Shown one piece after another: positions 19,980 through 51,345 of a stretch of 64,000 bases of DNA; position 1 is the stretch's first letter, and the number at the start of each line of letters is the position of its first letter. The position numbers and the translations under genes are program-made. The notes below the pieces were generated by a model, which did no database searches, was not told the origin of the DNA, and saw only the letters and a program-made list of their open reading frames with translations. Source of the stretch: Vulcanimicrobiota bacterium (GTDB lineage: Bacteria; Vulcanimicrobiota; Xenobia; Xenobiales; JADMJV01). Location: positions 62,001 to 126,000 of the forward strand of contig JAHBVR010000004.1 of NCBI GenBank assembly GCA_019637395.1. Reading direction: 5' to 3'.

Positions 19980-20867
19980 ATGCAAATCAGTGGTTTGAGG
20001 CAAACGCCCCCACCCCCGCCGCCGCCCAAGAAAGAGCTGGAAGTCAAACCCGAGCTCGATGACATCGCCGACCGTTACAATACTTCGCGCACCGTCGGGA
20101 ACTACACTTCCGGTCTGTTGCTGGGAGCGGCCAAGGAATCCGTCACCACCACCCTGCAGGCCCCCCGCCTGGCCTGGGAAATCACGGAGAACCTCTGGCA
20201 GGCTGAAACTATCGGCCCCAATCTGAAGATTTTAGGCACACTGGCGGCCGTTCCGGCAGCCGTGCTCTCCATCCCCTGTGGCCCTTTCTACGGCGCCTAC
20301 CAGGGAGTCTCGGCCGTGGCCGGCGCCCGTCACAATCTCGACGGCCTTCGCCCTCCGCTCAAGAAAGATACGGCCACCGATTACGCCCGCTCGGTCACAA
20401 CCCAGGTTGGTCCCGAGGACAAAGAGCCCAAGACCATGACGGGCCAGTGGATTCAAAGCCTGGAAGAGTTAGGCGAGCGCAAGCTGGCCGAGGGAGAAAG
20501 GCCTAAGGACGTGCCGCTGCTCAGCCCCGTCTTCTCGATCGCGGGCGGCGTCGCTTCGGGTGCCCTCTCGGGCGTGGCCGGACTGGTTATCGGCCTGGTG
20601 GCCGGCACCCTGACCTGCGGCAAAGAAATGCTTCACTCGGTCACCGACAAGGACAAATCCTTCGGAGCGCGGGCCGGTCAGTTTTTGGCCGCTCCGCTCA
20701 ATGTGGTGGCCATGCCGCTGGCCCTGGGCTGGAACGGCCTCAAGGAAGCCACCCCGCGCGGTTTCGTGGACGGCTGGAAACACGGTCCCATCAAACCCGT
20801 CGTCGACACCGGCAAGGCCGTCGCCGGCCTGGCCGTAAGCGTAGTCAAAGAAGCTTGGGAGCGCTAA
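19980..20867 (+). CDS. Gly/Ala-rich protein of unknown function (295 aa), tandem paralogue A
   Basis: N-terminal tail with seven consecutive prolines, then Lys/Glu-rich sequence. The body is rich in Ala, Gly and Val, with hydrophobic stretches (about residues 80-110 and 185-215) that could insert in or associate with membranes. A 13-residue block, ETIGPNLKI with flanks, is nearly identical to one in the next gene. So are ERKLAEGERPKDVPLL versus NEKLAEGEKPVDIPII. The pair arose by tandem duplication. The family is not recognised. Ribosome-site-like GAGGAAGAG precedes the ATG by about 6 bases. It is 4 bases from its partner. Confidence 0.7.
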   Translation: MQISGLRQTPPPPPPPKKELEVKPELDDIADRYNTSRTVGNYTSGLLLGAAKESVTTTLQAPRLAWEITENLWQAETIGPNLKILGTLAAVPAAVLSIPCGPFYGAYQGVSAVAGARHNLDGLRPPLKKDTATDYARSVTTQVGPEDKEPKTMTGQWIQSLEELGERKLAEGERPKDVPLLSPVFSIAGGVASGALSGVAGLVIGLVAGTLTCGKEMLHSVTDKDKSFGARAGQFLAAPLNVVAMPLALGWNGLKEATPRGFVDGWKHGPIKPVVDTGKAVAGLAVSVVKEAWER

Positions 20868-20871
20868 GACC

Positions 20872-21801
20872 ATGAATGTGATGACCACCAATACCCCCCG
20901 CGTTGGAATGCGCATTCAGTCGCAGCAACCGCAGCAGCCCGACGGACCGGAGAATCAGCCGCCACATCTGCCGACCAGGTTGGTCGACAAGATCATCGAC
21001 AAGACCTATCTGACGGCCAACTTTACCGCCTCCACCCTGAGCGGTGGCGTGGCCGGTCTGGGCGCCTACGCCAGGGCCGCCGCTCCGGCCACCCTGAAGG
21101 CTACCGGTTCGCTCTACAAGAATTTGTGGAAAGCCGAGACCATCGGACCGAACCTGAAGATCATCGGCAGCGTGGTGGCTGCCCCGCTGATGGTGGCCGG
21201 AGCCGTCATCGGCCTGCCCGTTTCCCTGGTGGCCGGAATGTACCAGGGCGGCGATGAAGTGCAGGCGAGCAAACCTCGCCAGTTCACCATCGGCGCCGCC
21301 ACCAGGGAAGGCTACACCAAGACCAAGGATGGCTGGGAGTCGCTCTCCAAGAGCGCCATCGAGAGCTTCACCGAGATGGGTAACGAAAAGTTGGCCGAAG
21401 GCGAGAAGCCCGTCGACATCCCCATCATCAAGAGCGTCAAAGCTCTGGCCATGGGCGTCACCGCCGCCGCCGTCGGCGGCATCGCCGGCGCCGTCAGCAT
21501 GGTGGTCTCGGCCGGACGTCAAATCGGCGCGGGTGTGGTCGACTCCCTGAGCGACTCTTCGCTGGGACTGGGTGGCAAACTGTTGGGCACGGCCGGAGCC
21601 GTCGTCGGCGGCGCTGTTCACGGCGTCGTCTACGGAGCCGGAACCTTCCTGAGCGTGACCGGTCAGGGCTTTGGCGAGACCTGGAAGAAAGACTCGGTTG
21701 CCCAGGGCGGCTCCAAGGTCTTCAAGCAGGCCTGGAGTTCCGTGGCCGCCTCGGCCGCTCCTCAGACGACCTTACTTCGGGAGAAGCCAGAGCAGAAGTA
21801 G
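20872..21801 (+). CDS. Gly/Ala-rich protein of unknown function (309 aa), tandem paralogue B
   Basis: Collinear with the preceding gene: polar, Gln/Pro-rich N-terminal tail (about 35 residues), then LWKAETIGPNLKIIG, a hydrophobic stretch at about 95-120, KLAEGEKPVDIPIIKS and a glycine-rich hydrophobic half (about 185-260; many GG and GAV steps). There is no signal peptide. Glycine-zipper-like content suggests membrane association, as in some colicin-like or Gly-zipper envelope proteins, but this is a compositional impression only. A second ATG 4 codons in (MTTNTP) is an alternative start. A strong terminator follows 8 bases after the stop. Confidence 0.7.
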   Translation: MNVMTTNTPRVGMRIQSQQPQQPDGPENQPPHLPTRLVDKIIDKTYLTANFTASTLSGGVAGLGAYARAAAPATLKATGSLYKNLWKAETIGPNLKIIGSVVAAPLMVAGAVIGLPVSLVAGMYQGGDEVQASKPRQFTIGAATREGYTKTKDGWESLSKSAIESFTEMGNEKLAEGEKPVDIPIIKSVKALAMGVTAAAVGGIAGAVSMVVSAGRQIGAGVVDSLSDSSLGLGGKLLGTAGAVVGGAVHGVVYGAGTFLSVTGQGFGETWKKDSVAQGGSKVFKQAWSSVAASAAPQTTLLREKPEQK

Positions 21802-22957: not shown

Positions 22958-24458
22958 TTAAAAGACCAGGTTGAAAGTGCGGCCCGGATCCCACTCGTAG
23001 TTCAAGGTGATCGGTCACCTGGAGAATGCGATCACGAGCATAGTAAAGAAAACCAACGCTGCGGTAGATCGGAATGAGCAATCGGCGCGGTCGGCCGAAG
23101 CGGTTGCGGACCCCGCATCTGAGCGCCGCCGCTCCCAGGCTACCGGCCGCGTGCTCGACAGTCGCTTCGGCCACGTCAGGGTCCGGCCTGGCTCGCCTAC
23201 AACCCACAAGCATCGTAGTCGAAGGTGGTTGTTCGATTTTCCGCTGTGGTGATGGTTTCTAGCCGATTGTCTCCGCTACGATACTGAAAGTCGTGATCTG
23301 CCCGTTACGGTCCGTGACCGTTTCAACCAGGCCGTCCGGACGTCGGGTTAAAATGATGGGGTTACCCAGCGCATCGATGACACGAAGGAGATTGCCCATC
23401 TCGTCATAGACAAACTCAGTAAGAGGACCGCTGACCAAATGACCCTCCACCGTCACGTCAGGTCCCTGAATGAACGTCGGCAAGTGATCTTCGTAGGTGT
23501 AGACCCAGGTGTTCCCGTGGTCGTCGGTCTGAGAATCCAGAAACCCTCGGAAGAGTAGGTCATTTCCGTGGTCGCTCCGTTAGGATTGATCACTCTCGTC
23601 GGAAGCAGTGGATGGTTGGTATCGTTGTATTCGATGTAGGTGATATTGAAGAGCTGCTCGGTCTCGTCGACCAGTTCCGCGCGTTGGGTGACATTGCCCA
23701 GAAAATCAAACTCCTGGAACACGAGACGGTCGGGAGAAGGGTCAGCGCTTTCGTCGATCTGGCGCACCGCCATCCAGTTGGGACCGTTGCCCAGCCCATA
23801 GCTGTCCGCCAGTTCTCGCGCATCTTTGTCGTAGATGGTTTCCGTGGTCCGTAGCCCATACCAGCTCTCACGGATCACGCGGCCCATCGCGCCGTAGGTG
23901 TAGACGATCGCTTCCTCCTCGCGCGGGTCGATGATCTTCCAAATCAAACCCTCTGCATTATAGACAAAGCTCGTGGTTTCGCCGGCGGGATTGGTTATGG
24001 ATTCCAGACGGTCGTCCAGGTCGTAGGAATAAAGAATCGAACGGGAGCCGCAAAAGACCTCTACAGGTTGACCATCACTGCGGCCTGTATAATCGAAGGT
24101 CACCACCGTGCCGCAAGCGTCCGTCATAGTGGCCAGTTGGCCGCCGCTGTAAGTATAGGTCGCCGCGTTGCCGTTACGGTCCACCTCTTGCAGTAACCGG
24201 CCGACTGGTTTGGTCTAAGAATGTGATGATGTAGGTCGCGTCCGGATCGCTATCCTTGACCAGAGTCGCGAAATTGTCGGTGGTGATCGGCACATAGTCC
24301 GTGCCGTCCAGCTTCCAACGCAGGTAATTGCCGACCTCGTTTCGGTAGGAAATTGCCCCACTGACCGAGTCTTCTATCACCCGAATGCTGCCGTTGGAAC
24401 GCCAGCCGAAGCCGGGTGAGGAAGGTTCGGAGTCCGGGCAAGCGCTGCAATAGGCCAT
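22958..24458 (-). pseudogene. Decayed RHS/YD-repeat protein gene, multiply frameshifted
   Basis: Read on the minus strand, YD-repeat sequence continues across several frames. The first piece (24458 to about 24215) ends in YIITFLDQT. The second (to about 23550) has DRNGNAATYTYSGGQL, FDYTGRSDGQP and TSFVYNAEGL. The third (to about 23280) has GNTWVYTYED and TEFVYDEMGNLLRV. A fourth frame gives YRSGDNRLETITTAENR and TTTFDYDACG followed by a stop. Near 22985 a last piece, YEWDPGRTFNLVF, ends at a TAA (22958-22960). At least four frame changes make it inactive. The N-terminal start resembles the FGxGW region where RHS core sheets begin, so the original 5' end is missing too. Intact RHS proteins are large shells for secreted toxins. 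Confidence 0.85.
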
Positions 24459-36969: not shown

Positions 36970-37197
36970 GCGTTGTTCTCCTAAGGTGTGTGTTTGATCA
37001 GGATAGCATTGCGCCAAGTTAACATCCAGGCCGATTGTGTCAGCAATGTACAACCGCTCGGGTGGCTGTTTTAACGCTTGTTTAACGCTGCTTTTGAGTA
37101 CTCCGCTCCCTACGTGAAGGCGCTGCCGCCAGCGTATTCTGGAGCAATCTCCGTAGGGAAATCCAGATTGCTTACGAATCGCGGCACATATCAGTAT

Positions 37198-40100
37198 ATG
37201 GGTTCCAGCTTGAAGTCCCCGGAGCGCGCCAGTTTTGTGCTCGCCGTCCACGGTAGTAGCCCAACTTTCCGGGAAGAACTGCGCTATTTGGCGCGCGTCC
37301 CGGGGGGGCGCCTGGCCGATACGCAGGGTGACGGAAGCCTGCACGTGCGCGCCGGGGGAGCTCGCCTCAGTTGGGACGATCTTGGCTACACTTCTATCCC
37401 TACCGTGCTGGTGCTGCTCCAAGATGACGAGCAGGCGGAAAAGCTTTACGAGCAACTCGCTCGCGTCAATGGCAAGCTGGTGGTGCCGCCTGGTCTGGCT
37501 TTGACCTGGGGTGACCGGGCCGCCCTGATCTGCGAACCCAGAGAATGGACCGCGCGCATTCCTTTGCTATTCCAAATCGCCGTCGACGCCGAGAGCCGGC
37601 GCCTGATCGAGGAGCGCCTCCCGGAGATCTGCGACCTTTTGCAACAGGCCACCGGCCACGACTTCCGCCATTATCGACAGGCGTTTGTGGCCCGCCGGGT
37701 GGAGCGGCGCATGGGCTTTACCCACCTGTTGAACCTGGACGATTACCTGGAGCTGATTCGCTCGCACCACGAGGAACTGCAGTTGCTTTTTCAGGATCTG
37801 CTGGTGGGAGTGACCCAGTTCTTTCGCGATCCCGATTCCTGGGAAGCGCTCGGCGGGCCCTTGCTGGAAATGTTGCGCAGCGGCGGCGGCTTGCGCATCT
37901 GGTCGGCCGGTTGCGCCACCGGCGAGGAAGCTTATAGCGTGGCCATGCTGGTGCTGGAGCTGTTGGAGGCTCACGATCTGAAGGCTGACGTGAAAGTGCT
38001 GGCCACCGACATTGATGAAGAAGCGTTGGCCGTGGCTCGCAGCGGAACCTACGGGATACACCTGAAAAATCACCTCTCTCCCGAACGTCTGTCGCGATTT
38101 TTCACCAGCACCGGAGAGGGTTATCGTATCTCCCGGGAGGTCCGCCAGATCTGTCAGTTTTCCCAGCACAACCTGGTTACCGACCCCCCTTTCGTGGAAA
38201 TCGATCTGGTGTTGTGCCGCAATGTCTTGATTTATCTCTCGCCGGCTCTGCAACAAAAACTGGTGCCGCTCTTTCACTACGCCTTGCGCGGCGGCGGCTA
38301 TCTGCTGCTGGGTAGCTCGGAAACGCTGGGAGACTCCTCGGCGCTCTACCAATTGGCCAGCGAGCAGGCGCGCCTCTATCGCCGCCTGGAGGCCGCCACC
38401 TCGGTGAGTCTGGGCAGCCCCGATCTGTTCCTGCGCAGCATGTTGCGCAATTCCAACCGCGACGTGGACCTGACCCAACTGGTGGGGGGCATCCTGGCCG
38501 ACGAATTCACCCCGCGCGCCCTGGTGGTTAACCGCGAAGGCGCCATTCTCTGGTCTTCCGGACGGCTCGAGCATCTTTTTCGCCTGGGCGAAGGAAATTT
38601 TCAGAACCAGGTTGTCCAGCTGGCTCGCAAAGGCCTGCGTAACCTCCTGCGCAGCGCCCTGCTGCAAGCCACTCGCGAGCAACGTACGATTTTACAGAGC
38701 GGCATCCGCATCGAGGCCAATGAGGAAGGACCGGCATGTTTGCTGGATCTGACCGTGCAGCCCATGCCCGAAATGGGCTCGCATACCGGTCTTTACCTGT
38801 TGGTTCTGCAAGACCGTCCGGTGACTTTAGCGCCGGCCCATGAGGATTCCGGCGGTGACGGGCGTCTCTTTGAAGTGGAGCGAGAATTGGCGCGCGTCAC
38901 CGACGAGCTGGATCGGGTCGTGCAAGAGCTGGAGTCGGCCAACGAAGAGTTGAAAAGCTCCAATGAAGAGCTCTGGGCCATGAACGAAGAGCTGCGCGTG
39001 ACCAACGAGGAACTGGAAAAGTCCCGGGCCGACGTGGAACTTAAAAATAAGCAATTAAGCCGGGCAAACCTCGACCTCAGCCATCTGCTCACGGCTACCA
39101 ACATTCCCACCGTTTTTCTCGATTTCGACCAGCGCGTCTTGCGCTACACACCCTCGTCCCGCCGCTTCTATCCTTTCCAGGACTCGGATCTGGGCCGGCC
39201 CATCCACGAGATCCGTGACCTGGCCCTCAACATGCCGCCCATTCCCGCCCATCCGGAGCAGGATCAGGAGGTGGAAGTAGAGATGCCGGACGGCTCCAGT
39301 TTCGTGCGCAAGGTCCTGCCTTACCGGGACTATTCCGGCCAGGAACTGGGAACGGTGGTCACTTTTGCCGATGTCACCGAGTTGCGCCGCAGCCGCGCTC
39401 GCCTTGACGATAGCCTGAAAGAGCTGGAAGCCGTCTACGAGTATGCTCCCATCGCCCTGGCCGTGGTCGACAGCGAGATGCAGGTTACCAAAAGCAATCG
39501 CCTCTTTGAGCAGATGGGGATCACTCGCTTGCCCTTCGAGCTGAGAGAGGCGATAAAACGGGCCTGGGAAACTGCGGTTCCGGTGCACGATGTCGAGTTT
39601 TCCCAGAAAAGTCGCTATTACCGGGCGGGACTCTATCCGCAAAGCCAGACGGCCAATCTGGTGGTGCGCGATGTCACCGAATCCAAGCAACGCGAACAGG
39701 AAGCTCTGCGCAAGGACTCCTTGCTGCAGGCCAGCGGCGAATTCCTGGCCATTGCCGATCCCGAAGGGCCCCTGCTCTACCTCAACGAGGCCGGACAAAA
39801 GCTCTGCGGCGTCTCAGGCTTTCGCCTGCCCGGCCTGGAACAGTGCTTTTTTGCCGAGGAGCAAGAACGTCTGCGTGTGGAAGTTTTGCCGGCCCTGGAG
39901 AGCGGCTCGGGCTGGAGCGGGTCCTGGCGCCTGCGCCATCGCATCAGCGGTCAGGCCGTTCCGGTCAGGGTTTCTTTCTCACTGCTCGATTCCGGGCTGA
40001 TCCACGTGGTGGCCCGGGACCGCAGGCCCGAGCAGCAGTTGGAAGAGCTGCTGGCTCAAGAGCGCGAGGCGGCCCAGGGCATGCTCGACCAGATGCCCGT

Positions 40101-43100
40101 CGGCATTCTTTTTATCGATGCCAACTACCGCTACCTGGCTGCCAATACCGAGGCCTGCCGTATTCTGGAGCGCTCGCCAGAGGATTTGCTGAGTCGCACG
40201 ATACTGGAACTCACCCCGGAGTTCCAGGGCAGCCCCTTCCAAGAAGCCTTCGATCGGGCTCTGCGGGGCGAACCTCAGGTTCTGAGTCGCTACTGGGAGC
40301 CGCACGGTCGCTATTACAATGTTCGTTACCTTCCTCACCCTTCGGGAGTCATGAGCATTTTCGAAGACATTACCGAGGCCAAGCGCACCGAGGCGGTGGC
40401 CCAGGAGATGATTCTAGCCGTCTCGGGTAGCAGCGATTTCATCGCCACCCTGGATAGTTCGCTCAAGATCCGCTTCGTCAATCAAGCCGGATTGCGTTTG
40501 CTGGGGCGGGAACAGGCGGTGGGGCTGGAGTTGAACCAGCTTTATCCGGAGTGGGCCCGCGCCGACGTGCGCACCGGCCTGGCTCACCTGCAGCATGATA
40601 CTCATTTCACGGTGGAGACGGCTTTGCTCCGCCAGAACGGTGAGGAGTTGCCGGTCTCTCAGGTCTTCCAACGCGTTTTCGACGACGAAGGGCGAGCGCT
40701 GGGATACTGCACCATCGCTCGCGATATCACTGAACTCCGCCGTCGTGAAGCCTATCTGCGCGAAAGCGAGGGGCGTTTTCGCCGGGCTATTTCGCAAGCT
40801 CCGATCCCCGTGCTGATCTTCACCGAAGATGGAGAAGTTCTCTCGGTCAGCGACTCTTTGGTGGAGATGACCGGTTACGAACTGTCGGAAGTCGCCCGCC
40901 TGCAGCACTGGGTGCTCATCGCCCATCGTGAAAAGGCCGATTGGGTTCGCGAACAGCTGGTCGGCTGGTTTCAGAAGGAACGGCAGCAGAGCTTTGAGGC
41001 CAATGTCTATACCCGCCGGGGAGACGCCCTGTTCTGGCGCTTTACGGGATCCCCGGTGGGCATCCTGGAGGATGGCCGCCGTTACCTCGTGATGATGGCG
41101 GTGGATCTGTCCGAGCGCCTGGAGAAAGAGCGAGCTCTGCAGGAGGGCAGCAACTTTCTGCGGCGGACCCTGGATAGTCTGCAACTCTTCGCTGGCGTCT
41201 GTACTCCCGACGGGATTCTGGTCGAGGTCAACCGGACCGCTCTGGAGTTGGCTCATTTGCAGCCCGAGCAGGTGCTGGGTAAGCCTCTGGCTCAAACCTA
41301 TTGGTGGTCTCACGACGCCACCCTGCGGCACGAGTTGCGCACCGCTTTGGAAACAGCTGCTACTGGAGAGTCCGTGCGTTTTGATACCCAGGTGTTGGTG
41401 TCCGACGGGCAGACCATGGCGCTGGATTTCCAGGTGGTGCCTATGCGCGATGCCGCCGGCCGCATCACTCACCTGGTGCCCTCCGGCCTGGATATTACCC
41501 AGCGTCTGGCCACCGAGCGCGCTCGCCAGGCCGATCAGGATCGCTTTCGAGCTCTGCTCAATTCCACGGCCGAGGCCATCTATGGTCTGGATTTGCAAGG
41601 GCGCTTTACCTTCGCCAACCACTCCTGCCTGGAGATGCTCGGCTACGACAGCGATACCGAACTGCTCGGCTGTGACGCCCACCAGAAAATTCACTATCTG
41701 CATCTCGACGGTTCGCCCTATCCGGCTTCCGAGTGCCCGATCCAACGGGCCCTGCGGAATTCTCAGCCGGTCTATGCTCCCAAGGAGTATTTGATCCGCA
41801 AAGACGGCAGCTTCATGCCGGTGGAGATGTGGGCCCACCCGAAACGTATCGCCGGCAGGATCACCGGTTGCGTGGTTACCTACTTTGACATCTCGGAGCG
41901 CCTGCGCATCGCCGAGGAACTCTCGCAGGCCAAAGCCGCGGCGGAATCGGCCAGTCAGGCCAAGTCCGACTTTCTGGCCAACATGAGTCACGAGATTCGC
42001 ACTCCCATGGCGGCGATTCTGGGTTATGTCGATATCTTGCTGCGCCAGGTCAGCGAGCCCGACGACGTCGAGTGTTTGCGAGTGATCCAGCGCAACGGCG
42101 TACACCTGCTCGAGATCATCAACGACATCCTCGACCTTTCCAAGATCGAGGCCGGGCGTCTGCAACTGGAGACCGTGCCGCTTTCCTTGGAGGTGGTGCT
42201 GGGTGAGGTCATGTCGCTCATGAACGTGCGGGCGGTTGAGAAGAACCTGCAATTGAGCCTGGACTTCGAAGGCGCCGTGCCGCGTACCATCACCAGCGAC
42301 CCCACCCGCCTGCGCCAGGTTTTGATGAATTTGCTGGGCAACGCCATCAAGTTCACCGAGGAGGGTTCGGTGGCCCTGCGCGTGCGCATGCGCGACCAAC
42401 ATCTGTTGGAGATCAGCGTCCGCGACACCGGCATCGGCATCTCTGAGGAGCAATTGGACCAGTTGTTCCAGCCCTTTACCCAGGCGGACACTTCGGTGAC
42501 CCGGCGTTTTGGCGGCACCGGCCTGGGGCTGGTCATCAGCCGGAAACTGATCGAGATGCTGGGGGGAACCATCGAAGTCAGCAGTCAGCCTGGCAGGGGG
42601 TCGATATTCCGCTTCACGTTGGCCACCGGCGATCTGGCCGGCGTCGAGTCGGTTCAGGAAGGTCCGATGGAGTTGCGCTCCTCCGCCAGCGAGGCGATTT
42701 CCGGTAATCTGCCGGACTTGAGCGGTTTGCGCGTGTTGGTGGTGGATGACCGCCGGGATATCCGCTATCTGGTGCAGAGTTATTTGGAAGAAGCGGGTGC
42801 GGCCGTGGAAACCGGCGGGGACGGCCAAGCGGCGCTCGACTACCTGGAGCACACCGCTCCCGACATCCTGGTGCTGGACATGCAGATGCCCCGATTGGAC
42901 GGCTACTCGACCGCTCGGGAATTGCGCCAGCGGGGCTGTAAAATTCCTATTCTGGCCTTGACCGCCTCGGCCATGAAATATGACCGTGAATTATGCCTGC
43001 AGGCCGGCTGTGACAGCTATCTGAGCAAGCCGGTGCAGCGCGCCGCGCTCTTGCGCCAGGTGGAAGTGCTGGTGCGGCGCGGCCAGGCTCTGCGCGTGCT

Positions 43101-43434
43101 GGTGGTGGAAGACAATCCCATGGCCGGAGTGGCTTTGCGGGCCACTTTGCAAAGTCTGGGGTGCGAAGCGACGCTGGTGGCCGATGGAGAAGGGGCTCTG
43201 GAGAAGGCCGCCGCCGAAGCCCCCGATTTTGCTTTCATCGATCTCGGCCTGCCCGGCATGGACGGCTGGGAATTGTTGCGCCTTTTGCGCCAGCAAAATC
43301 CTGGCTGTCGCTGCGTGCTGCACAGTGGCCGGGCCGCCGACGAAGTGGTCAGTCCTCAACCCGGACTGGCCTTTGATGAAATCGTGCAAAAGCCGGCCAG
43401 CCGCGATCAGCTTAACGCGATTCTCTTTCCTTGA
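37198..43434 (+). CDS. Giant soluble signalling protein: CheR - coiled coil - about 8 PAS - histidine kinase - 2 receivers (2078 aa)
   Basis: N-terminal region 1-140 is unassigned. CheR-type methyltransferase is at about 140-390 (WSAGCATGEEAYSVA, CRNVLIYLS). A coiled coil with NEELKSSNEELWAMNEELRV is at about 558-634. About eight PAS-like units follow to about 1575, separated by linkers such as DVTELRRSRARL and DITEAKRTEA. HisKA has SHEIRTPMA (His 1598). HATPase has LLGNAIKFTEEG, DTGIGISEE and GGTGLGLVIS. Two intact receivers have Asp 1894 and Asp 2015. Relatives usually begin with a CheB domain, but no Ser/His/Asp triad is visible here. ATG at 37198 is preferred; a TTG 40 codons upstream is open too. 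No membrane segments, so it senses cytoplasmic signals. Confidence 0.88.
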   Translation: MGSSLKSPERASFVLAVHGSSPTFREELRYLARVPGGRLADTQGDGSLHVRAGGARLSWDDLGYTSIPTVLVLLQDDEQAEKLYEQLARVNGKLVVPPGLALTWGDRAALICEPREWTARIPLLFQIAVDAESRRLIEERLPEICDLLQQATGHDFRHYRQAFVARRVERRMGFTHLLNLDDYLELIRSHHEELQLLFQDLLVGVTQFFRDPDSWEALGGPLLEMLRSGGGLRIWSAGCATGEEAYSVAMLVLELLEAHDLKADVKVLATDIDEEALAVARSGTYGIHLKNHLSPERLSRFFTSTGEGYRISREVRQICQFSQHNLVTDPPFVEIDLVLCRNVLIYLSPALQQKLVPLFHYALRGGGYLLLGSSETLGDSSALYQLASEQARLYRRLEAATSVSLGSPDLFLRSMLRNSNRDVDLTQLVGGILADEFTPRALVVNREGAILWSSGRLEHLFRLGEGNFQNQVVQLARKGLRNLLRSALLQATREQRTILQSGIRIEANEEGPACLLDLTVQPMPEMGSHTGLYLLVLQDRPVTLAPAHEDSGGDGRLFEVERELARVTDELDRVVQELESANEELKSSNEELWAMNEELRVTNEELEKSRADVELKNKQLSRANLDLSHLLTATNIPTVFLDFDQRVLRYTPSSRRFYPFQDSDLGRPIHEIRDLALNMPPIPAHPEQDQEVEVEMPDGSSFVRKVLPYRDYSGQELGTVVTFADVTELRRSRARLDDSLKELEAVYEYAPIALAVVDSEMQVTKSNRLFEQMGITRLPFELREAIKRAWETAVPVHDVEFSQKSRYYRAGLYPQSQTANLVVRDVTESKQREQEALRKDSLLQASGEFLAIADPEGPLLYLNEAGQKLCGVSGFRLPGLEQCFFAEEQERLRVEVLPALESGSGWSGSWRLRHRISGQAVPVRVSFSLLDSGLIHVVARDRRPEQQLEELLAQEREAAQGMLDQMPVGILFIDANYRYLAANTEACRILERSPEDLLSRTILELTPEFQGSPFQEAFDRALRGEPQVLSRYWEPHGRYYNVRYLPHPSGVMSIFEDITEAKRTEAVAQEMILAVSGSSDFIATLDSSLKIRFVNQAGLRLLGREQAVGLELNQLYPEWARADVRTGLAHLQHDTHFTVETALLRQNGEELPVSQVFQRVFDDEGRALGYCTIARDITELRRREAYLRESEGRFRRAISQAPIPVLIFTEDGEVLSVSDSLVEMTGYELSEVARLQHWVLIAHREKADWVREQLVGWFQKERQQSFEANVYTRRGDALFWRFTGSPVGILEDGRRYLVMMAVDLSERLEKERALQEGSNFLRRTLDSLQLFAGVCTPDGILVEVNRTALELAHLQPEQVLGKPLAQTYWWSHDATLRHELRTALETAATGESVRFDTQVLVSDGQTMALDFQVVPMRDAAGRITHLVPSGLDITQRLATERARQADQDRFRALLNSTAEAIYGLDLQGRFTFANHSCLEMLGYDSDTELLGCDAHQKIHYLHLDGSPYPASECPIQRALRNSQPVYAPKEYLIRKDGSFMPVEMWAHPKRIAGRITGCVVTYFDISERLRIAEELSQAKAAAESASQAKSDFLANMSHEIRTPMAAILGYVDILLRQVSEPDDVECLRVIQRNGVHLLEIINDILDLSKIEAGRLQLETVPLSLEVVLGEVMSLMNVRAVEKNLQLSLDFEGAVPRTITSDPTRLRQVLMNLLGNAIKFTEEGSVALRVRMRDQHLLEISVRDTGIGISEEQLDQLFQPFTQADTSVTRRFGGTGLGLVISRKLIEMLGGTIEVSSQPGRGSIFRFTLATGDLAGVESVQEGPMELRSSASEAISGNLPDLSGLRVLVVDDRRDIRYLVQSYLEEAGAAVETGGDGQAALDYLEHTAPDILVLDMQMPRLDGYSTARELRQRGCKIPILALTASAMKYDRELCLQAGCDSYLSKPVQRAALLRQVEVLVRRGQALRVLVVEDNPMAGVALRATLQSLGCEATLVADGEGALEKAAAEAPDFAFIDLGLPGMDGWELLRLLRQQNPGCRCVLHSGRAADEVVSPQPGLAFDEIVQKPASRDQLNAILFP

Positions 43435-46829: not shown

Positions 46830-47588
46830 TTACTTGCCGCCGGCGGCTTTGTAGGTGGCCCAGGCGCTGCCTTTGCCGTGGGTGATGGCCCAGGCGCAGG
46901 CCAGGGCCTGTTGGCGCCAATCCAGCCAGTTGAGCTCGCCCAGGCCGGCCCAGGCGCCGGGATTGGCCTTCTTGGCTTCGGTAGCGTAGCTCTTGAAGGT
47001 GGATTCGATGAACTGGAACATGCCTTTGGAGGGAGTGCCTTTTTTGGCGTTCGAATCCCAGTTGTTGACGGCGTTGGCCTTGAAACCTGACTCTTTCTCG
47101 GCGATCTTGGTCAAGACGTCGGCGTCGGCACCGTAGGCCGCGGCTGCTTGTTTGATATAAGACTTGATTTCGCCCTGGTCGGAGGTGTCGTTGGCCGGGG
47201 CCTTGCCATTGGCGGCGCTGGCGTCCATGGCGCCGGTCGAGCCGCCGCCACCGCCTCCGCCTCCGACGCTGGAGACTCCGCCGGAGTCCGCGCCGCCGGC
47301 AGCCGCTGCATTGGCGGTGTCGCCGCCGAGTTTATTGCCCATCAACCCTAGTAAAAGTTGCATCATTTGCAGCATCAGGCCGTTCATCTGCATCGACTGC
47401 TGCAGCAGGGCCTGGGTGGCCGGGTCACTGCCCGTCAATCCGCTCGCGCCCGGCAGGAGAGAATTCAGACCGCCCAGGCGATTGAGAGAGGCCAGGCCAA
47501 GGTTGGGGTCGAGAGTGGGAACCCCCGAAGAAAATCCTGAGAGGGCCGGGTTCTGGCCCAGGGGGTTCATTCCGCAAATTCCGTCCAT
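46830..47588 (-). CDS. Lytic transglycosylase (SLT domain) without signal peptide (252 aa)
   Basis: An AGGAGG ribosome site 7 bases before the ATG at 47588 fixes the start. The N-terminal 150 residues are Gly/Leu/Asn/Met-rich and end in a run of nine glycines. The SLT domain (about 150-245) has the catalytic Glu in IAEKESGFKANA, then KGMFQFIESTF and a terminal ACAWAITHGKGSAWATYK. It cleaves peptidoglycan glycan strands. No Sec signal peptide is present, which is unusual for an enzyme that must reach the wall. The Gly-rich N-terminal part may serve a different export route. A 320-base non-coding stretch lies upstream. Confidence 0.85.
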   Translation of the reverse strand: MDGICGMNPLGQNPALSGFSSGVPTLDPNLGLASLNRLGGLNSLLPGASGLTGSDPATQALLQQSMQMNGLMLQMMQLLLGLMGNKLGGDTANAAAAGGADSGGVSSVGGGGGGGGSTGAMDASAANGKAPANDTSDQGEIKSYIKQAAAAYGADADVLTKIAEKESGFKANAVNNWDSNAKKGTPSKGMFQFIESTFKSYATEAKKANPGAWAGLGELNWLDWRQQALACAWAITHGKGSAWATYKAAGGK

Positions 47589-47908
47589 CGTTATCCTCCT
47601 GTGGCCCTTATGTTGGCACATTCGCGGACGTTTGCGGCGGGCCGATTGTAAATTGCTTGATCCTTTTGTTGCCGGGAGGTTAAAGCTTGCGCGGATTTCG
47701 TTAGCAAACACCCTTCCCGTGTCAGTTTAGCATCTTTGCAACGGTCGTTCGAGCAGGCTTTGGTTAAGAGAATGTTGCGCGTGTTTCCGGCGAGTTAACT
47801 CTTGTTGCCGACTGTTCATGGATCTGCGGCCGATTTATCCTTTCCTTATTCACCGCGGGCAAGCGCGGGGCGGGGGCTCGCGTGGCTACGGGCAGCGCGC
47901 GGACCAGC
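47589..47908. other. Non-coding stretch between the protease and the transglycosylase genes
   Basis: 320 bases. It must hold the promoter of the transglycosylase gene (ribosome site at 47595-47600 on the minus strand). I see AT-richer sequence around 47640-47790 that would suit a promoter but no convincing -35/-10 pair, no clear terminator for the protease gene, and no open frame with coding character. Confidence 0.5.
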
Positions 47909-49441
47909 TCAGTCTTTCCAGACGGGCAGGGGTTGGTATTCGGGGGGGCCGTCACGGCGGGGGACGAGGCGGGCGGGGCCAATGCCGTCCTCGCCGACCA
48001 GCTGGCCCGAATCGGCCAGCGCCCGGGCTTCGCGGTTGAGGTCGGCGCGGTCGTCGGCGTCCAGTGGCGTGGCCGTCTCGGAAACGAGCTGGCCGGCGGC
48101 GTCAAAAACCAGCGTCAGGCCGGCTTCGGCCTGCATAAAGGCGGCGCCGCGCGAGCCCAGGTCGAGCTCGACCCGCTCGGGGGCGCGGAAGGTGTAGACC
48201 CGGCGGCCGTCGGCCCCGGCCAGAGCCTGGTCGGCCCGCCACGGGTGGTTGTTCAGGCCCAGGCGCGAGAGCATGTCCTCGGCTCCGCCACGGGTTTGGG
48301 GGAATTGCTCCAGGCGGAAAGAGCGCACCGGCTTGTGCAGCTCGTCGATCTGCTGCTGGGTGAGCAGATTGCGGTCCAACATCACCGCCGCCAGGCTGTC
48401 GAAATACTTGCCGCCCTCCAACTGGTTGGCTTCGCGCAAAACGGCGCTGGCCACGTGGCGAAACTTGAGGTTGGCCGCCGGAATGTGGTCCAGCGACTTG
48501 CCCCAAATGGTGCCCAGCACATCGCGGGCCTGGCGCAAGGCGTCCAGCTGCGAAGGAGCGTCGGCGGCGCACTGGTTATACAGCGAACCCAGCATAGAGT
48601 AAAACGAACCCGACCAGATGCGCGAGAACGAGTGGGGCTCGCTGGTCAGCACTTCCTCCGGCTGCGAAGGCGGATAGCTGTCCGAGGGCAGCGTTTTCGG
48701 GTCCGCATATTTGAACTCGTTGAGAGCCGTCCGATAATAAGGATGGTCGTCGTTGTTCGGATTGTCGTCTTCCTTGTTGAAGGCGGTGCCGAATTCTTCG
48801 GCCAAGCGCGTGACCAGGCTGGGTTGGGAAAAATCTCCCCCGTTGTCGGCCAGAATCTGCCGCAGGTTGCTGTCGTACTGCAGCGCATGCAGAATGGCCG
48901 AGCTGTCGCCGAAGCCCTCGTGAAAAGCTTTGCCTTCGGTGCCGCTGAGCAAGCCGGGGCGCAGGCCGTCCAGGATGGCGTGGCCAATCTCGTGGGAGCC
49001 GACGTCAAAAGACTGAGAGGTCTTGACGATTTTGCCCAGCGAGGGGGAATCCCACTGGAAGAAATTGATGGACTGGTCCCACCTCGAGTAATAGGCGGTC
49101 TTGCCCTCGCCGGCGTGGGGATTGACTTCCAGCGGCCCTTTGAAGGACCAGGGCACGGTGTGGCCCATATAGTGCTCATAGGTGGCCAGCGCGCCGGCCA
49201 CGATGCCGTGGGTATTGACCTGGTCGAATTGGGGCGAGCCGATTTCGTAGAGATAGTTGCCGTCGGCGTCGGCCTGGGCCACCGCCACCGAATCCTGGGT
49301 GTGCAGCCGCGGTCCGCTGAGCTGGCTGCCGAACTGCACTTTGTCGAACTGCACCAGCTCGGCTTTCGAGATCATGGGATCTTGGGGGAGCATGTTGATG
49401 GAGACCAGGTCTCGGACGGTGGGGGACTTCGAGATAACCAT
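47909..49441 (-). CDS. Thermolysin-like zinc metalloprotease without signal peptide (510 aa)
   Basis: Zinc motif HEIGH (His 150, Glu 151, His 154), with third ligand in FHEGFGDSSA (Glu 175) 20 residues later, the gluzincin (M4/M36) pattern. IVAGALATYEHYMGHTVPW and SINFFQWDSPSLGKI upstream resemble the strand and loop before HEXXH in M4-like enzymes. Residues 280-420 are helical (C-terminal M4-like lobe), followed by a beta/Ala-Asp-rich tail. There is no signal peptide or classical propeptide, so it acts inside the cell or leaves by a specialised route. It is likely a lone gene; the divergent receiver gene begins 94 bases away. Confidence 0.8.
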   Translation of the reverse strand: MVISKSPTVRDLVSINMLPQDPMISKAELVQFDKVQFGSQLSGPRLHTQDSVAVAQADADGNYLYEIGSPQFDQVNTHGIVAGALATYEHYMGHTVPWSFKGPLEVNPHAGEGKTAYYSRWDQSINFFQWDSPSLGKIVKTSQSFDVGSHEIGHAILDGLRPGLLSGTEGKAFHEGFGDSSAILHALQYDSNLRQILADNGGDFSQPSLVTRLAEEFGTAFNKEDDNPNNDDHPYYRTALNEFKYADPKTLPSDSYPPSQPEEVLTSEPHSFSRIWSGSFYSMLGSLYNQCAADAPSQLDALRQARDVLGTIWGKSLDHIPAANLKFRHVASAVLREANQLEGGKYFDSLAAVMLDRNLLTQQQIDELHKPVRSFRLEQFPQTRGGAEDMLSRLGLNNHPWRADQALAGADGRRVYTFRAPERVELDLGSRGAAFMQAEAGLTLVFDAAGQLVSETATPLDADDRADLNREARALADSGQLVGEDGIGPARLVPRRDGPPEYQPLPVWKD

Positions 49442-49535
49442 GCACCCAGCTTAGGCCAGCCGAAGGCCGGGCGCTTGAACAGCGAGTTACAAGTTTCCCG
49501 CAGGGGAGGGTCGCGCGCCCCGGGAAGGCCCCGCC

Positions 49536-49877
49536 ATGAAGATACTGATCGTGGACGATGCCCCCGATATTCGCGAGATTCTGGAAATCGTGCTGGCCCA
49601 GGACGGTTGGGAAGTCAGCACCTCCGACTGCCTGGCTCAGGCCAACGGGGAGCTGGCCAGGAGCACTCCCGAGATCATTTTGCTCGACTTTCAGCTTCCC
49701 GATGGGGACGGAGTGAGCGCCGCCCGCGAGTGGAAGAGCCGGCCGGAATTAGCCGCCGTTCCCATCGTTCTCTATACCGGTGCGGAAGGCCATCAGGGAG
49801 ACCCCAGCCTGGCCGGCGTCATCGTCAAGACCATTGATCCGTTCGAACTTTCGGGGCGACTGAAAGCCTTCCAATAG
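49536..49877 (+). CDS. Stand-alone response receiver (CheY-like, 113 aa)
   Basis: Single receiver domain: Asp 7-Asp 8 (LIVDDAPD), phospho-acceptor Asp 51 in ILLDFQLPDGDG, Thr in VLYTGAEG and Lys in IVKTIDPFEL. There is no output domain, so it acts by protein contact. It is shorter than most CheY (about 120), with a trimmed helix 4-strand 5 region. No kinase gene adjoins. The multi-receiver or giant kinases in this window are possible phosphate sources. A long frame on the same strand through the protease is a shadow. Confidence 0.88.
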   Translation: MKILIVDDAPDIREILEIVLAQDGWEVSTSDCLAQANGELARSTPEIILLDFQLPDGDGVSAAREWKSRPELAAVPIVLYTGAEGHQGDPSLAGVIVKTIDPFELSGRLKAFQ

Positions 49878-49938
49878 ATCCGTTTTGTAACTTCAGGGCA
49901 ACCTCTTGGCCGGGAGGGAAGGCTACCCTGAGGGAACG

Positions 49939-51345
49939 ATGATTACCCGGCTGCAAAGTTCCCCTCTCCCGCCCGCCAAACGGCTGGAATATCCCCAGGC
50001 GGGTATTCCCGAGGCTCGCCATGAACGCCCCGTGGTCATCGTCCATGGAACTCTGGTTGATAAGCAATCCATCGAGGCCTACCGCGATTACGCCATTCAG
50101 AAAGGCCACCCGGTCGACTGGCAAAACTATCAGGGAATCACCGACGGTGCCTTGCTCCAGGAATCGGCCCGGCAGGTTTCCCAGAATATCAATCAGGCTC
50201 GCCAGGAGTTGGCCCGCACCCATCTGGCCGAACTGCAGGGCGCCGACTCCGAACAGTTGGCCAAGTTCTTCCACACCGACGACTCGTTGCGAGGCCGCAA
50301 AGTCAAAGAGAACCTGGAGTGGTTCGTGAAACGAGCGGCCAGCGAAGTCACCGCGCCCAACCTCGATACCCTCAGCTCCCGCCTGAAAAAGCTGGAAGGT
50401 CAGTTGGAAAAGCGCCTGGGCGGCGAGGAATGGACGGCCAGGGCGGCCGCCCACGTGGTCGACTGCCTGGCCCCCAAAGCCACCGTGGTGGGTCACAGCG
50501 CTGGGGGCTACATCGCCTACGCCCTGGCCCTCAACCCGGAGGACGGCCAGAAATCCAAATTTCCCAAGTACGACGGCGGCCTGGGCATCGGTGAAGTGGT
50601 GGTGCTTTCTTCGCCCATCGGCAAAGGCATGAACTTTCCCGCTCCTCCCGGCCTGGCCGAGCTGCCCTACTACCAGATGGTGGAAAAGCCGATTTTGCAG
50701 CCGCTGGAAGCCTCGCCCCTGATGAAGCTGGCCGAACTCAATCCCTTCTTCAAAATGGGTTATGCTCTCAGCAAGACAGCCACCAAGACGGCCTGGGCCA
50801 TGGCCACGCAGATGAATACCGGCCTGATGAGCCCGGTGATTTTCGCCCAGAAGCCCGGCTATGAACAGGTCACCGGCTTCTCGTCCTTTTTCAAGGAGTG
50901 CCTGCAGGACAAAACGGTGCCCGAGGGCGTCACCGTGGTGGCGGTCACCTCCAAGGATGACCGCATGGCCTTGCCCAGCCACTCGCGCCTCGAGGCTGCC
51001 CGGCCCAACGCCCACAACTTCGAGGTTGACCAGCAGATCAGCCAGGCCGAACTGGAGCGCGAGCGCCCTACCTGGGGCCACGTACAGATGAGCATGAAGC
51101 CGGAGCTTTTCGAGCAACAGTTCGAACAGTCGCTACTGGATCATCCGGCCGAGGCCATCCGCTTTTTAGACCCCAGCAACGATGACGGGGCTCGTTACGA
51201 TGTCCTCCAGACCCTGCAAAATCAAGGACCCGAGTGGTTGGCCGGGCAGCCCGATCTGAAACAGGCGGTGGCCCGGGTGGCGGCCGAGAACCAGCCTTTC
51301 CGGGATAGCCCTTCGGCTCTGGCTCAGTTGCTTTTGCGCCCGTAG
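49939..51345 (+). CDS. Alpha/beta-hydrolase (lipase-like), 468 aa
   Basis: ATG at 49939 after GAGGGAACG. Oxyanion-loop VIVHGTL is at 33-39 and the nucleophile elbow GHSAGG has Ser 187. Between them lies a helical insert of about 140 residues (cap). EVVVLSSPIGKGMNF follows the elbow. VTVVAVTSKDDRMALPSHS near 340-360 supplies the acid (Asp), and a following GHVQMS may hold the His. Resembles lipases with a large lid. No signal peptide. The Pro-rich N-terminal 25 residues (SSPLPPAKRLEYPQ) are likely disordered. It is 61 bases after the receiver gene on the same strand. Confidence 0.75.
   Translation: MITRLQSSPLPPAKRLEYPQAGIPEARHERPVVIVHGTLVDKQSIEAYRDYAIQKGHPVDWQNYQGITDGALLQESARQVSQNINQARQELARTHLAELQGADSEQLAKFFHTDDSLRGRKVKENLEWFVKRAASEVTAPNLDTLSSRLKKLEGQLEKRLGGEEWTARAAAHVVDCLAPKATVVGHSAGGYIAYALALNPEDGQKSKFPKYDGGLGIGEVVVLSSPIGKGMNFPAPPGLAELPYYQMVEKPILQPLEASPLMKLAELNPFFKMGYALSKTATKTAWAMATQMNTGLMSPVIFAQKPGYEQVTGFSSFFKECLQDKTVPEGVTVVAVTSKDDRMALPSHSRLEAARPNAHNFEVDQQISQAELERERPTWGHVQMSMKPELFEQQFEQSLLDHPAEAIRFLDPSNDDGARYDVLQTLQNQGPEWLAGQPDLKQAVARVAAENQPFRDSPSALAQLLLRP

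What the first reader, a model, noticed from the sequence alone, without database searches (positions are those of the whole stretch)
46830..51345. Three hydrolases without signal peptides in a row: SLT transglycosylase, thermolysin-like protease, lipase-like hydrolase
All three act normally on wall, proteins or lipids outside the cell, but each begins with a polar, Gly/Pro/Ser-rich tail instead of a signal peptide. Their grouping with exported proteins suggests leaderless secretion by a dedicated machine, possibly predatory or antibacterial effectors.
Basis: inference. Interest (0 to 1): 0.6.

Follow-up and report, generated by a model that had tools for sequence, protein, structure and literature searches.

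The report
Leaderless wall-cutting enzymes, shared front module
In a little-studied group of bacteria (Eremiobacterota), many enzymes that cut cell walls, proteins and lipids lack the usual export tag and instead carry one of two recurring front ends, which suggests that they leave the cell by another route, possibly the flagellar export machine.

Summary
The three genes are real and none has a signal peptide, also at alternative starts. They are not one unit: a response-regulator gene separates protease and hydrolase, the order is kept only among close relatives, and the tails differ (SLT ~135 aa, protease ~11, hydrolase ~15).

The window is Eremiobacterota. The SLT protein shares an N-terminal module (Gly/Pro head, Met/Gln/Leu helix, Gly/Ser linker) with about a dozen leaderless proteins of its genome whose C-terminal domains differ: SLT, NlpC/P60, CHAP, GH19, glucosaminidase, SGNH esterase, GDPD, M15-like. 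A profile of the module finds 44 places in 7 genomes and none in 51 others.

The protease has a thermolysin-like fold and about ten leaderless paralogs. Leaderless clostripains of the phylum carry a bipartite N-tail: Ile at position 3/4, then D-x-V-x-[LI]-[GS] near residue 35 (26 of 35 tails; shuffles give 0.7).

This supports Sec-independent export of many hydrolases. T6SS and contractile-sheath genes were not found; a complete flagellar export apparatus was. Flagellar export is the best guess, not shown. No recurrent immunity genes were found, so antibacterial-effector status is not supported. The alpha/beta hydrolase is the weakest member.

The parts
46830..47588 (-). Leaderless SLT transglycosylase with the N-terminal Met/Gln-helix module (252 aa)
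   Evidence: PF01464; AGGAGG before the ATG; module profile E 7.9e-20
47184..47588 (-). N-terminal module, residues 1-135: Gly/Pro/Asn-rich head, helix, Gly/Ser linker
   Evidence: composition; shared with proteins that have other C-terminal domains
47334..47408 (-). Met/Gln/Leu stretch LLQQSMQMNGLMLQMMQLLLGLMGN (residues 61-85), probably an amphipathic helix
   Evidence: alignment A1, coordinates; helix inferred from sequence
46971..47159 (-). SLT catalytic domain as matched by Pfam (residues 144-206); likely catalytic Glu166 at 47091-47093
47909..49441 (-). Thermolysin-like metalloprotease, leaderless, 510 aa, member of an expanded paralog family
48980..48994 (-). HEIGH zinc-binding motif (residues 150-154)
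   Evidence: invariant H150, E151, H154 in 22 homologues, coordinates
48917..48919 (-). third zinc ligand Glu175
   Evidence: invariant, coordinates; role by analogy with thermolysin
48632..48634 (-). His270, probable counterpart of the thermolysin catalytic His
   Evidence: invariant, coordinates; assignment by analogy
49536..49877 (+). Stand-alone response-regulator receiver protein that separates protease and hydrolase; probably not part of the system
   Evidence: PF00072, 54.5 bits
49939..51345 (+). Alpha/beta hydrolase, leaderless, 468 aa; weakest member
   Evidence: Abhydrolase_6; conserved in the genus
50491..50508 (+). nucleophile elbow GHSAGG (residues 185-190)
   Evidence: invariant in 6 homologues, coordinates

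Best explanation
The SLT protein is one of a family of about a dozen leaderless modular hydrolases in this genome, in which one N-terminal module is joined by a Gly/Ser linker to different wall- or lipid-cutting domains. The protease belongs to a second, larger set of leaderless exoenzymes (thermolysin-like, clostripain, subtilase, GHL10, amylase, patatin); many of the clostripains have a bipartite N-tail (Ile at position 3/4, then D-x-V-x-[LI]-[GS] near residue 35). The N-termini most likely act as export signals that bypass Sec and Tat. The likeliest machine is the flagellar-type type III export apparatus, because the tails have the layout of the FlgM N-terminus and the other systems searched were not found. 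Passing straight to the outside would explain why wall-cutting enzymes need no immunity partner. Their role would be digestion of prey, competitors or detritus. Shown: the families, their lack of signal peptides, the shared module and the motif. Inferred: export, the machine, and the ecological role. The three window genes are neighbours by synteny, not one system; membership of the alpha/beta hydrolase is uncertain.
For: Module profile: 44 places in 7 genomes, none in 51. Own-genome matches not used to build it also turned out to be leaderless hydrolases: CHAP-like, GDPD, glucosaminidase. C-terminal domains by Pfam: NlpC/P60, CHAP, SGNH/GDSL, SLT, glucosaminidase, GDPD, Exo_endo_phos; GH19 just under its cut-off. 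Protease: ten matches in the own genome, up to 14 in relatives; thermolysin fold. Clostripain: 17 matches in the own genome; D-x-V-x-[LI]-[GS] in 26 of 35 leaderless tails, always at residues 29-44, shuffle mean 0.68 and maximum 5 in 5000 rounds; Ile at position 3/4 in 80% against 14% of all sampled leaderless proteins of the own genome. The motif is also on a leaderless amylase and a GHL10 protein. A complete flagellar operon contains a leaderless SLT gene. FlgM of E. coli and of a relative (L293) starts M-x-I and has V-x-L-S near residue 40. VipB and sheath absent from the own genome. FlgM has been used as a secretion moiety (PMC3595227); Campylobacter exports non-flagellar proteins by its flagellar system (PMC5223770).
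Against: No secretion data. All 38 genomes tested have FHIPEP, including those without these enzymes, so presence of the apparatus does not discriminate. The Pfam FlgM model does not match the tails, and the FlgM proteins read lack the Asp of the motif. The window protease has an 11-residue tail without the motif, and the hydrolase tail is missing in G003. The module proteins do not carry the D-x-V-x-L motif, so two classes may use two routes. In G024 and G028 the protease lies about 10 kb from flagellar genes but not in an operon with them. Type I, II, IV and VII systems were not searched. Tails of related genes are not independent samples.
Confidence: 0.45

Rival explanations
1. The enzymes leave by another, unidentified or untested machine (type I-like, holin-like or new), which reads the module or the bipartite tail.
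For: The two N-terminal types are not alike; FHIPEP is in every genome tested while the enzymes are not; G006 has the module but only one FliP.
Against: No candidate machine was seen, although several kinds were not searched. Type I signals are normally C-terminal (general knowledge).
Confidence: 0.3
2. The proteins stay in the cytoplasm and are released when the cell lyses, as autolysins or lysis-dependent public goods; the module helix binds membranes or makes assemblies.
For: No signal peptide. Outside the phylum the SLT catalytic domain is closest to SLT domains of phage tape-measure proteins. The helix could be a membrane or oligomer contact (inference).
Against: Several enzyme families share the same front ends, and a motif kept at one position across families of the phylum suggests recognition by a receptor.
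Confidence: 0.2
3. The module proteins are contact-delivered antibacterial effectors with immunity partners.
For: The architecture resembles marker-domain effectors: one front module, many wall- and lipid-cutting domains.
Against: No recurrent neighbour; genes are single and dispersed. T6SS VipB and contractile sheath not found in the own genome. The secreted phosphatase beside the window SLT is kept in G003 but was not seen beside the SLT homologues of G006 and G017.
Confidence: 0.1
4. The three window enzymes are unrelated to each other, and the hydrolase is an ordinary cytoplasmic esterase (compatible with the best explanation for the other two).
For: Protease and hydrolase on separate contigs in G004, protease and SLT in G006; the tail of the hydrolase is dispensable.
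Against: Says nothing about the module on the SLT protein or the lack of a signal on the protease.
Confidence: 0.45

Closest known systems
Marker-domain polymorphic effectors (MIX of T6SS, PMC5666596; LXG of T7SS, from own knowledge)
   Same: one conserved leaderless N-terminal region joined to many different enzymatic domains
   Different: no T6SS found, no immunity partners seen, the module is a short Met/Gln-rich helix; the cognate machine is unknown
Flagellar type III export of non-flagellar proteins (Campylobacter, PMC5223770, PMC2764114)
   Same: proteins without Sec signals, directed by an N-terminal sequence; flagellar apparatus present
   Different: here many degradative enzymes per genome share recurring N-termini; export is not shown
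FlgM (flagellar anti-sigma factor)
   Same: M-x-I start, long polar N-terminus, V-x-L-S near residue 40
   Different: no Asp before the motif in the FlgM sequences read; Pfam FlgM does not match the tails
Thermolysin family M4 / fungalysin M36
   Same: fold and zinc/catalytic residues
   Different: no signal peptide; no Pfam M4 match; TM-scores about 0.6 by target length
Harpin-like type III helper proteins with wall-cutting domains (own knowledge, a lead only)
   Same: Gly-rich, leaderless, amphipathic helix, enzymatic domain
   Different: no sequence match shown

Membership tests
SLT transglycosylase (PF01464) | profile match above cut-off | tested here: met
   36.9 against 21.3 bits, though only profile positions 2-56 of 117 align
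SLT transglycosylase (PF01464) | catalytic Glu in the E-S motif | tested here: met
   Glu166; the E-S is kept in relatives
Thermolysin-like (clan MA) | HExxH, downstream Glu ligand and catalytic His | tested here: met
   invariant in 22 homologues
Thermolysin-like (clan MA) | fold | tested here: met
   Foldseek E 2.2e-7 to thermolysin
Peptidase M4 in Pfam | Pfam match | tested here: not met
   no family at E 0.1; so called thermolysin-like, not filed as M4
Alpha/beta hydrolase | profile match and nucleophile elbow | tested here: met
Alpha/beta hydrolase | fold confirmed by model | tested here: inconclusive
   pLDDT 55
Lipase | activity on lipids | not testable with these tools
   only a weak, short profile match to a secreted lipase, E 0.0055
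Marker-domain effector family | shared N-module with variable C-terminal domains | tested here: met
Marker-domain effector family | adjacent immunity gene | tested here: not met
   no recurrent neighbour in 12 loci of the own genome
T6SS or contractile injection cargo | machine present in the genome | tested here: not met
   VipB and sheath absent from the own genome
Type III export substrate | no Sec signal, aliphatic residue or Pro at position 3/4 | tested here: inconclusive
   94% of clostripain tails against 54% of leaderless proteins; SLT (MDGI) and protease (MVIS) have it, the hydrolase (MITR) does not; the rule comes from P. syringae and is not absolute (PMC3338616)
Type III export substrate | export apparatus present | tested here: met
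   flagellar operon; FHIPEP, FliP, FlhB
Type III export substrate | secretion lost without the export gate | not testable with these tools
   needs an experiment

The most novel reading that the evidence does not exclude
Eremiobacterota export a large leaderless set of proteases, wall hydrolases and lipases with two undescribed N-terminal signals, one of them a FlgM-like bipartite tail read by a flagellar-type export apparatus that serves as a general exoenzyme exporter.
Probability: 0.3. Interest if true: 0.88.

Novelty: new variant of a known kind. Interest (0 to 1): 0.7.

Why it matters
If true, part of an almost uncultured phylum exports degradative enzymes without Sec, and a short N-terminal pattern would let one read its secretome from sequence. 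It would show flagellar-type export used on a large scale for digestion, not only for building flagella or delivering a few effectors, and would give a handle on how these bacteria feed. It also warns that signal-peptide predictors would miss much of the secretome here.

Tried and rejected
Missed signal peptides at other starts: excluded. T6SS and contractile injection: families not found in the own genome. Injectisome next to the second FlhA or FliP: both genes stand alone. Genome-wide excess of Ser/Pro tails: only a weak difference from a control genome (18% against 15%; 5.5% against 2.4% by a stricter rule), so not used as evidence. The D-x-V-x-L motif in the window protease: DLVSIN matches loosely, but the model shows it as the first strand of the fold, so it was not counted. 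Double-glycine leader: most tails have no Gly-Gly at that place, so rejected by inspection. Pfam FlgM on the tails: no match. FHIPEP count against clostripain count: Spearman 0.70, partial 0.45 after genome size, no correction for kinship, so only suggestive. Structure of the hydrolase: poor model, no fold search. PDB sequence search for the SLT protein: nothing useful. First scripts with an error.

Full report
What was checked. The window is G000:C31:62001-126000 of a 7.66 Mb genome. Named near relatives include 'Candidatus Eremiobacterota' MAGs. Gene calls are from a simple home-made caller, so starts of unmatched genes are provisional.

The three genes. SLT gene 46830-47588 (-): PF01464 above cut-off, ATG start behind AGGAGG. 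Protease 47909-49441 (-): no Pfam or NCBIfam match; the AlphaFold model (pLDDT 90.6) matches thermolysin, vibriolysin and M36 proteases, and H150, E151, H154, E175, D179 and H270 are invariant in 22 homologues. Hydrolase 49939-51345 (+): Abhydrolase_6 just above cut-off with invariant GHSAGG; its model is poor, so 'lipase' is not established. A receiver-domain gene (49536-49877 +) lies between the last two. In-frame upstream sequence offers no signal peptide for any of them.

Not one system. The order is kept in G001-G003. In G004 protease and hydrolase are on different contigs (C104, C9), and in G006 protease and SLT are (C473, C393). The neighbourhood is synteny within a genus.

The module. 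A protein search with the SLT gene gave, besides orthologues, matches to its N-terminal half only. Those proteins are leaderless and end in other enzymes. A profile of 15 N-termini finds 44 places in G000-G004, G006 and G017, 11 of them in the own genome, and none in 51 other genomes of the phylum. Own-genome matches that were not in the profile proved to be CHAP-like, GDPD and glucosaminidase proteins of the same build. Pfam assigns NlpC/P60, CHAP, GDSL/SGNH, SLT, glucosaminidase, GDPD and Exo_endo_phos; GH19 is just under its cut-off. The M15-like and 3D-like readings rest on motifs that I read by eye. The SLT domain of the window is closest, outside the phylum, to phage tape-measure SLT domains, but no phage or plasmid match covers 80% of the protein, and the matches listed begin after the module.

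Neighbours. The module genes are single and dispersed, without a recurrent immunity or chaperone gene. The secreted metallophosphatase next to the window SLT is kept in G003 but was not seen beside the SLT homologues of G006 and G017.

A second leaderless class. The protease has ten matches in the own genome and up to 14 in relatives; the paralogs read are leaderless. Clostripain (PF03415) has 17 matches in the own genome and none in the f12 genomes tested; not all were read, and at least one in the own genome has a lipoprotein-like signal (L289). In 35 leaderless clostripain tails from many genera, [DE]-x-[VI]-x-[LIM]-[GSNTD] occurs in 26, always at residues 29-44; shuffled tails give a mean of 0.68 and a maximum of 5. 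Ile at position 3 or 4 occurs in 80%, against 14% of sampled leaderless proteins of the own genome. These tails were collected by enzyme family, not by motif, but I wrote the motif after seeing about half of them; the other 20 stretches, fetched afterwards, show it in most leaderless cases and in none of the three with Sec-type signals. The genes are related, so the counts are not independent draws. Looser searches show the motif on other leaderless enzymes: amylase and GHL10. Three protease homologues from other families of the phylum carry it. The window protease does not.

Machine. VipB and contractile-sheath families are absent from the own genome (a sheath occurs in G001). A complete flagellar operon lies at C34:95.9-113.8 kb and contains a leaderless SLT gene. 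Extra FlhA and FliP genes stand alone on C21 and C10; a second full FlhB was not found in the own genome. FlgM of E. coli and of a relative (L293) begin M-x-I and have a V-x-L-S stretch near residue 40, the layout of the clostripain tails. The Pfam FlgM model does not match the tails, so this is a resemblance of layout and not membership. FlgM has been used as a secretion moiety (PMC3595227), and non-flagellar proteins are exported by the Campylobacter flagellar system (PMC5223770). The type III rule of an aliphatic residue or Pro at position 3/4 was described for P. syringae and is not absolute (PMC3338616).

Reading. Sec-independent export is likely for the SLT family and plausible for the protease; the flagellar apparatus is the leading but unproven candidate. 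If the enzymes cross both membranes at once, lack of immunity genes is expected (inference). Relatives in the phylum have been suggested to be predators (PMC9259500), which fits a digestive role but does not test it. The alpha/beta hydrolase may be unrelated. I found no description of either N-terminus in the papers searched, but that library is not complete.

Noticed in passing
own genome, e.g. C17:9070-10377, C12:512277-514631, C2:299825-301973, C32:179157-180848, C5:67748-68890: The C-terminal domain of FlhA/SctV (FHIPEP) is amplified as stand-alone proteins, 19 FHIPEP matches in all; some have signal peptides, one starts like an HTH protein. Many Eremiobacterota have several.
   Followed up: partly
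L112:9529-10728 (C36:57529-58728): A fusion of the FlhB/SctU C-terminal domain with the FlhA/SctV C-terminal domain in one soluble-looking protein, also in relatives.
   Followed up: partly
L056:13216-15522 (C21:49215-51521): FliG_N joined to a FHIPEP C-terminal domain, near a leaderless SLT gene and a lone full-length FlhA.
   Followed up: partly
L111:3967-5970, L094:8351-9982, L043:1663-4836, L113:14700-16100: Leaderless proteins with calpain plus EF-hand, PTP-like phytase, patatin and UVB_sens_prot domains.
   Followed up: partly
L049:8743-9513 (C31:235742-236512): A second leaderless SLT protein with an extremely Met-rich N-terminus, not found by the module profile.
   Followed up: partly
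window 19980-20867 and 20872-21801 (+): Two tandem related proteins with Pro/Gln-rich starts and Gly/Ala-rich hydrophobic stretches, no Pfam family above cut-off.
   Followed up: no
window 37168-43434 (+): A 2,088-aa signalling protein that reads like CheR, many PAS domains, a histidine kinase and two receiver domains (read by eye).
   Followed up: no
window 23259-24380 (-): Fragments that look like Rhs/YD repeats in broken frames (read by eye).
   Followed up: no
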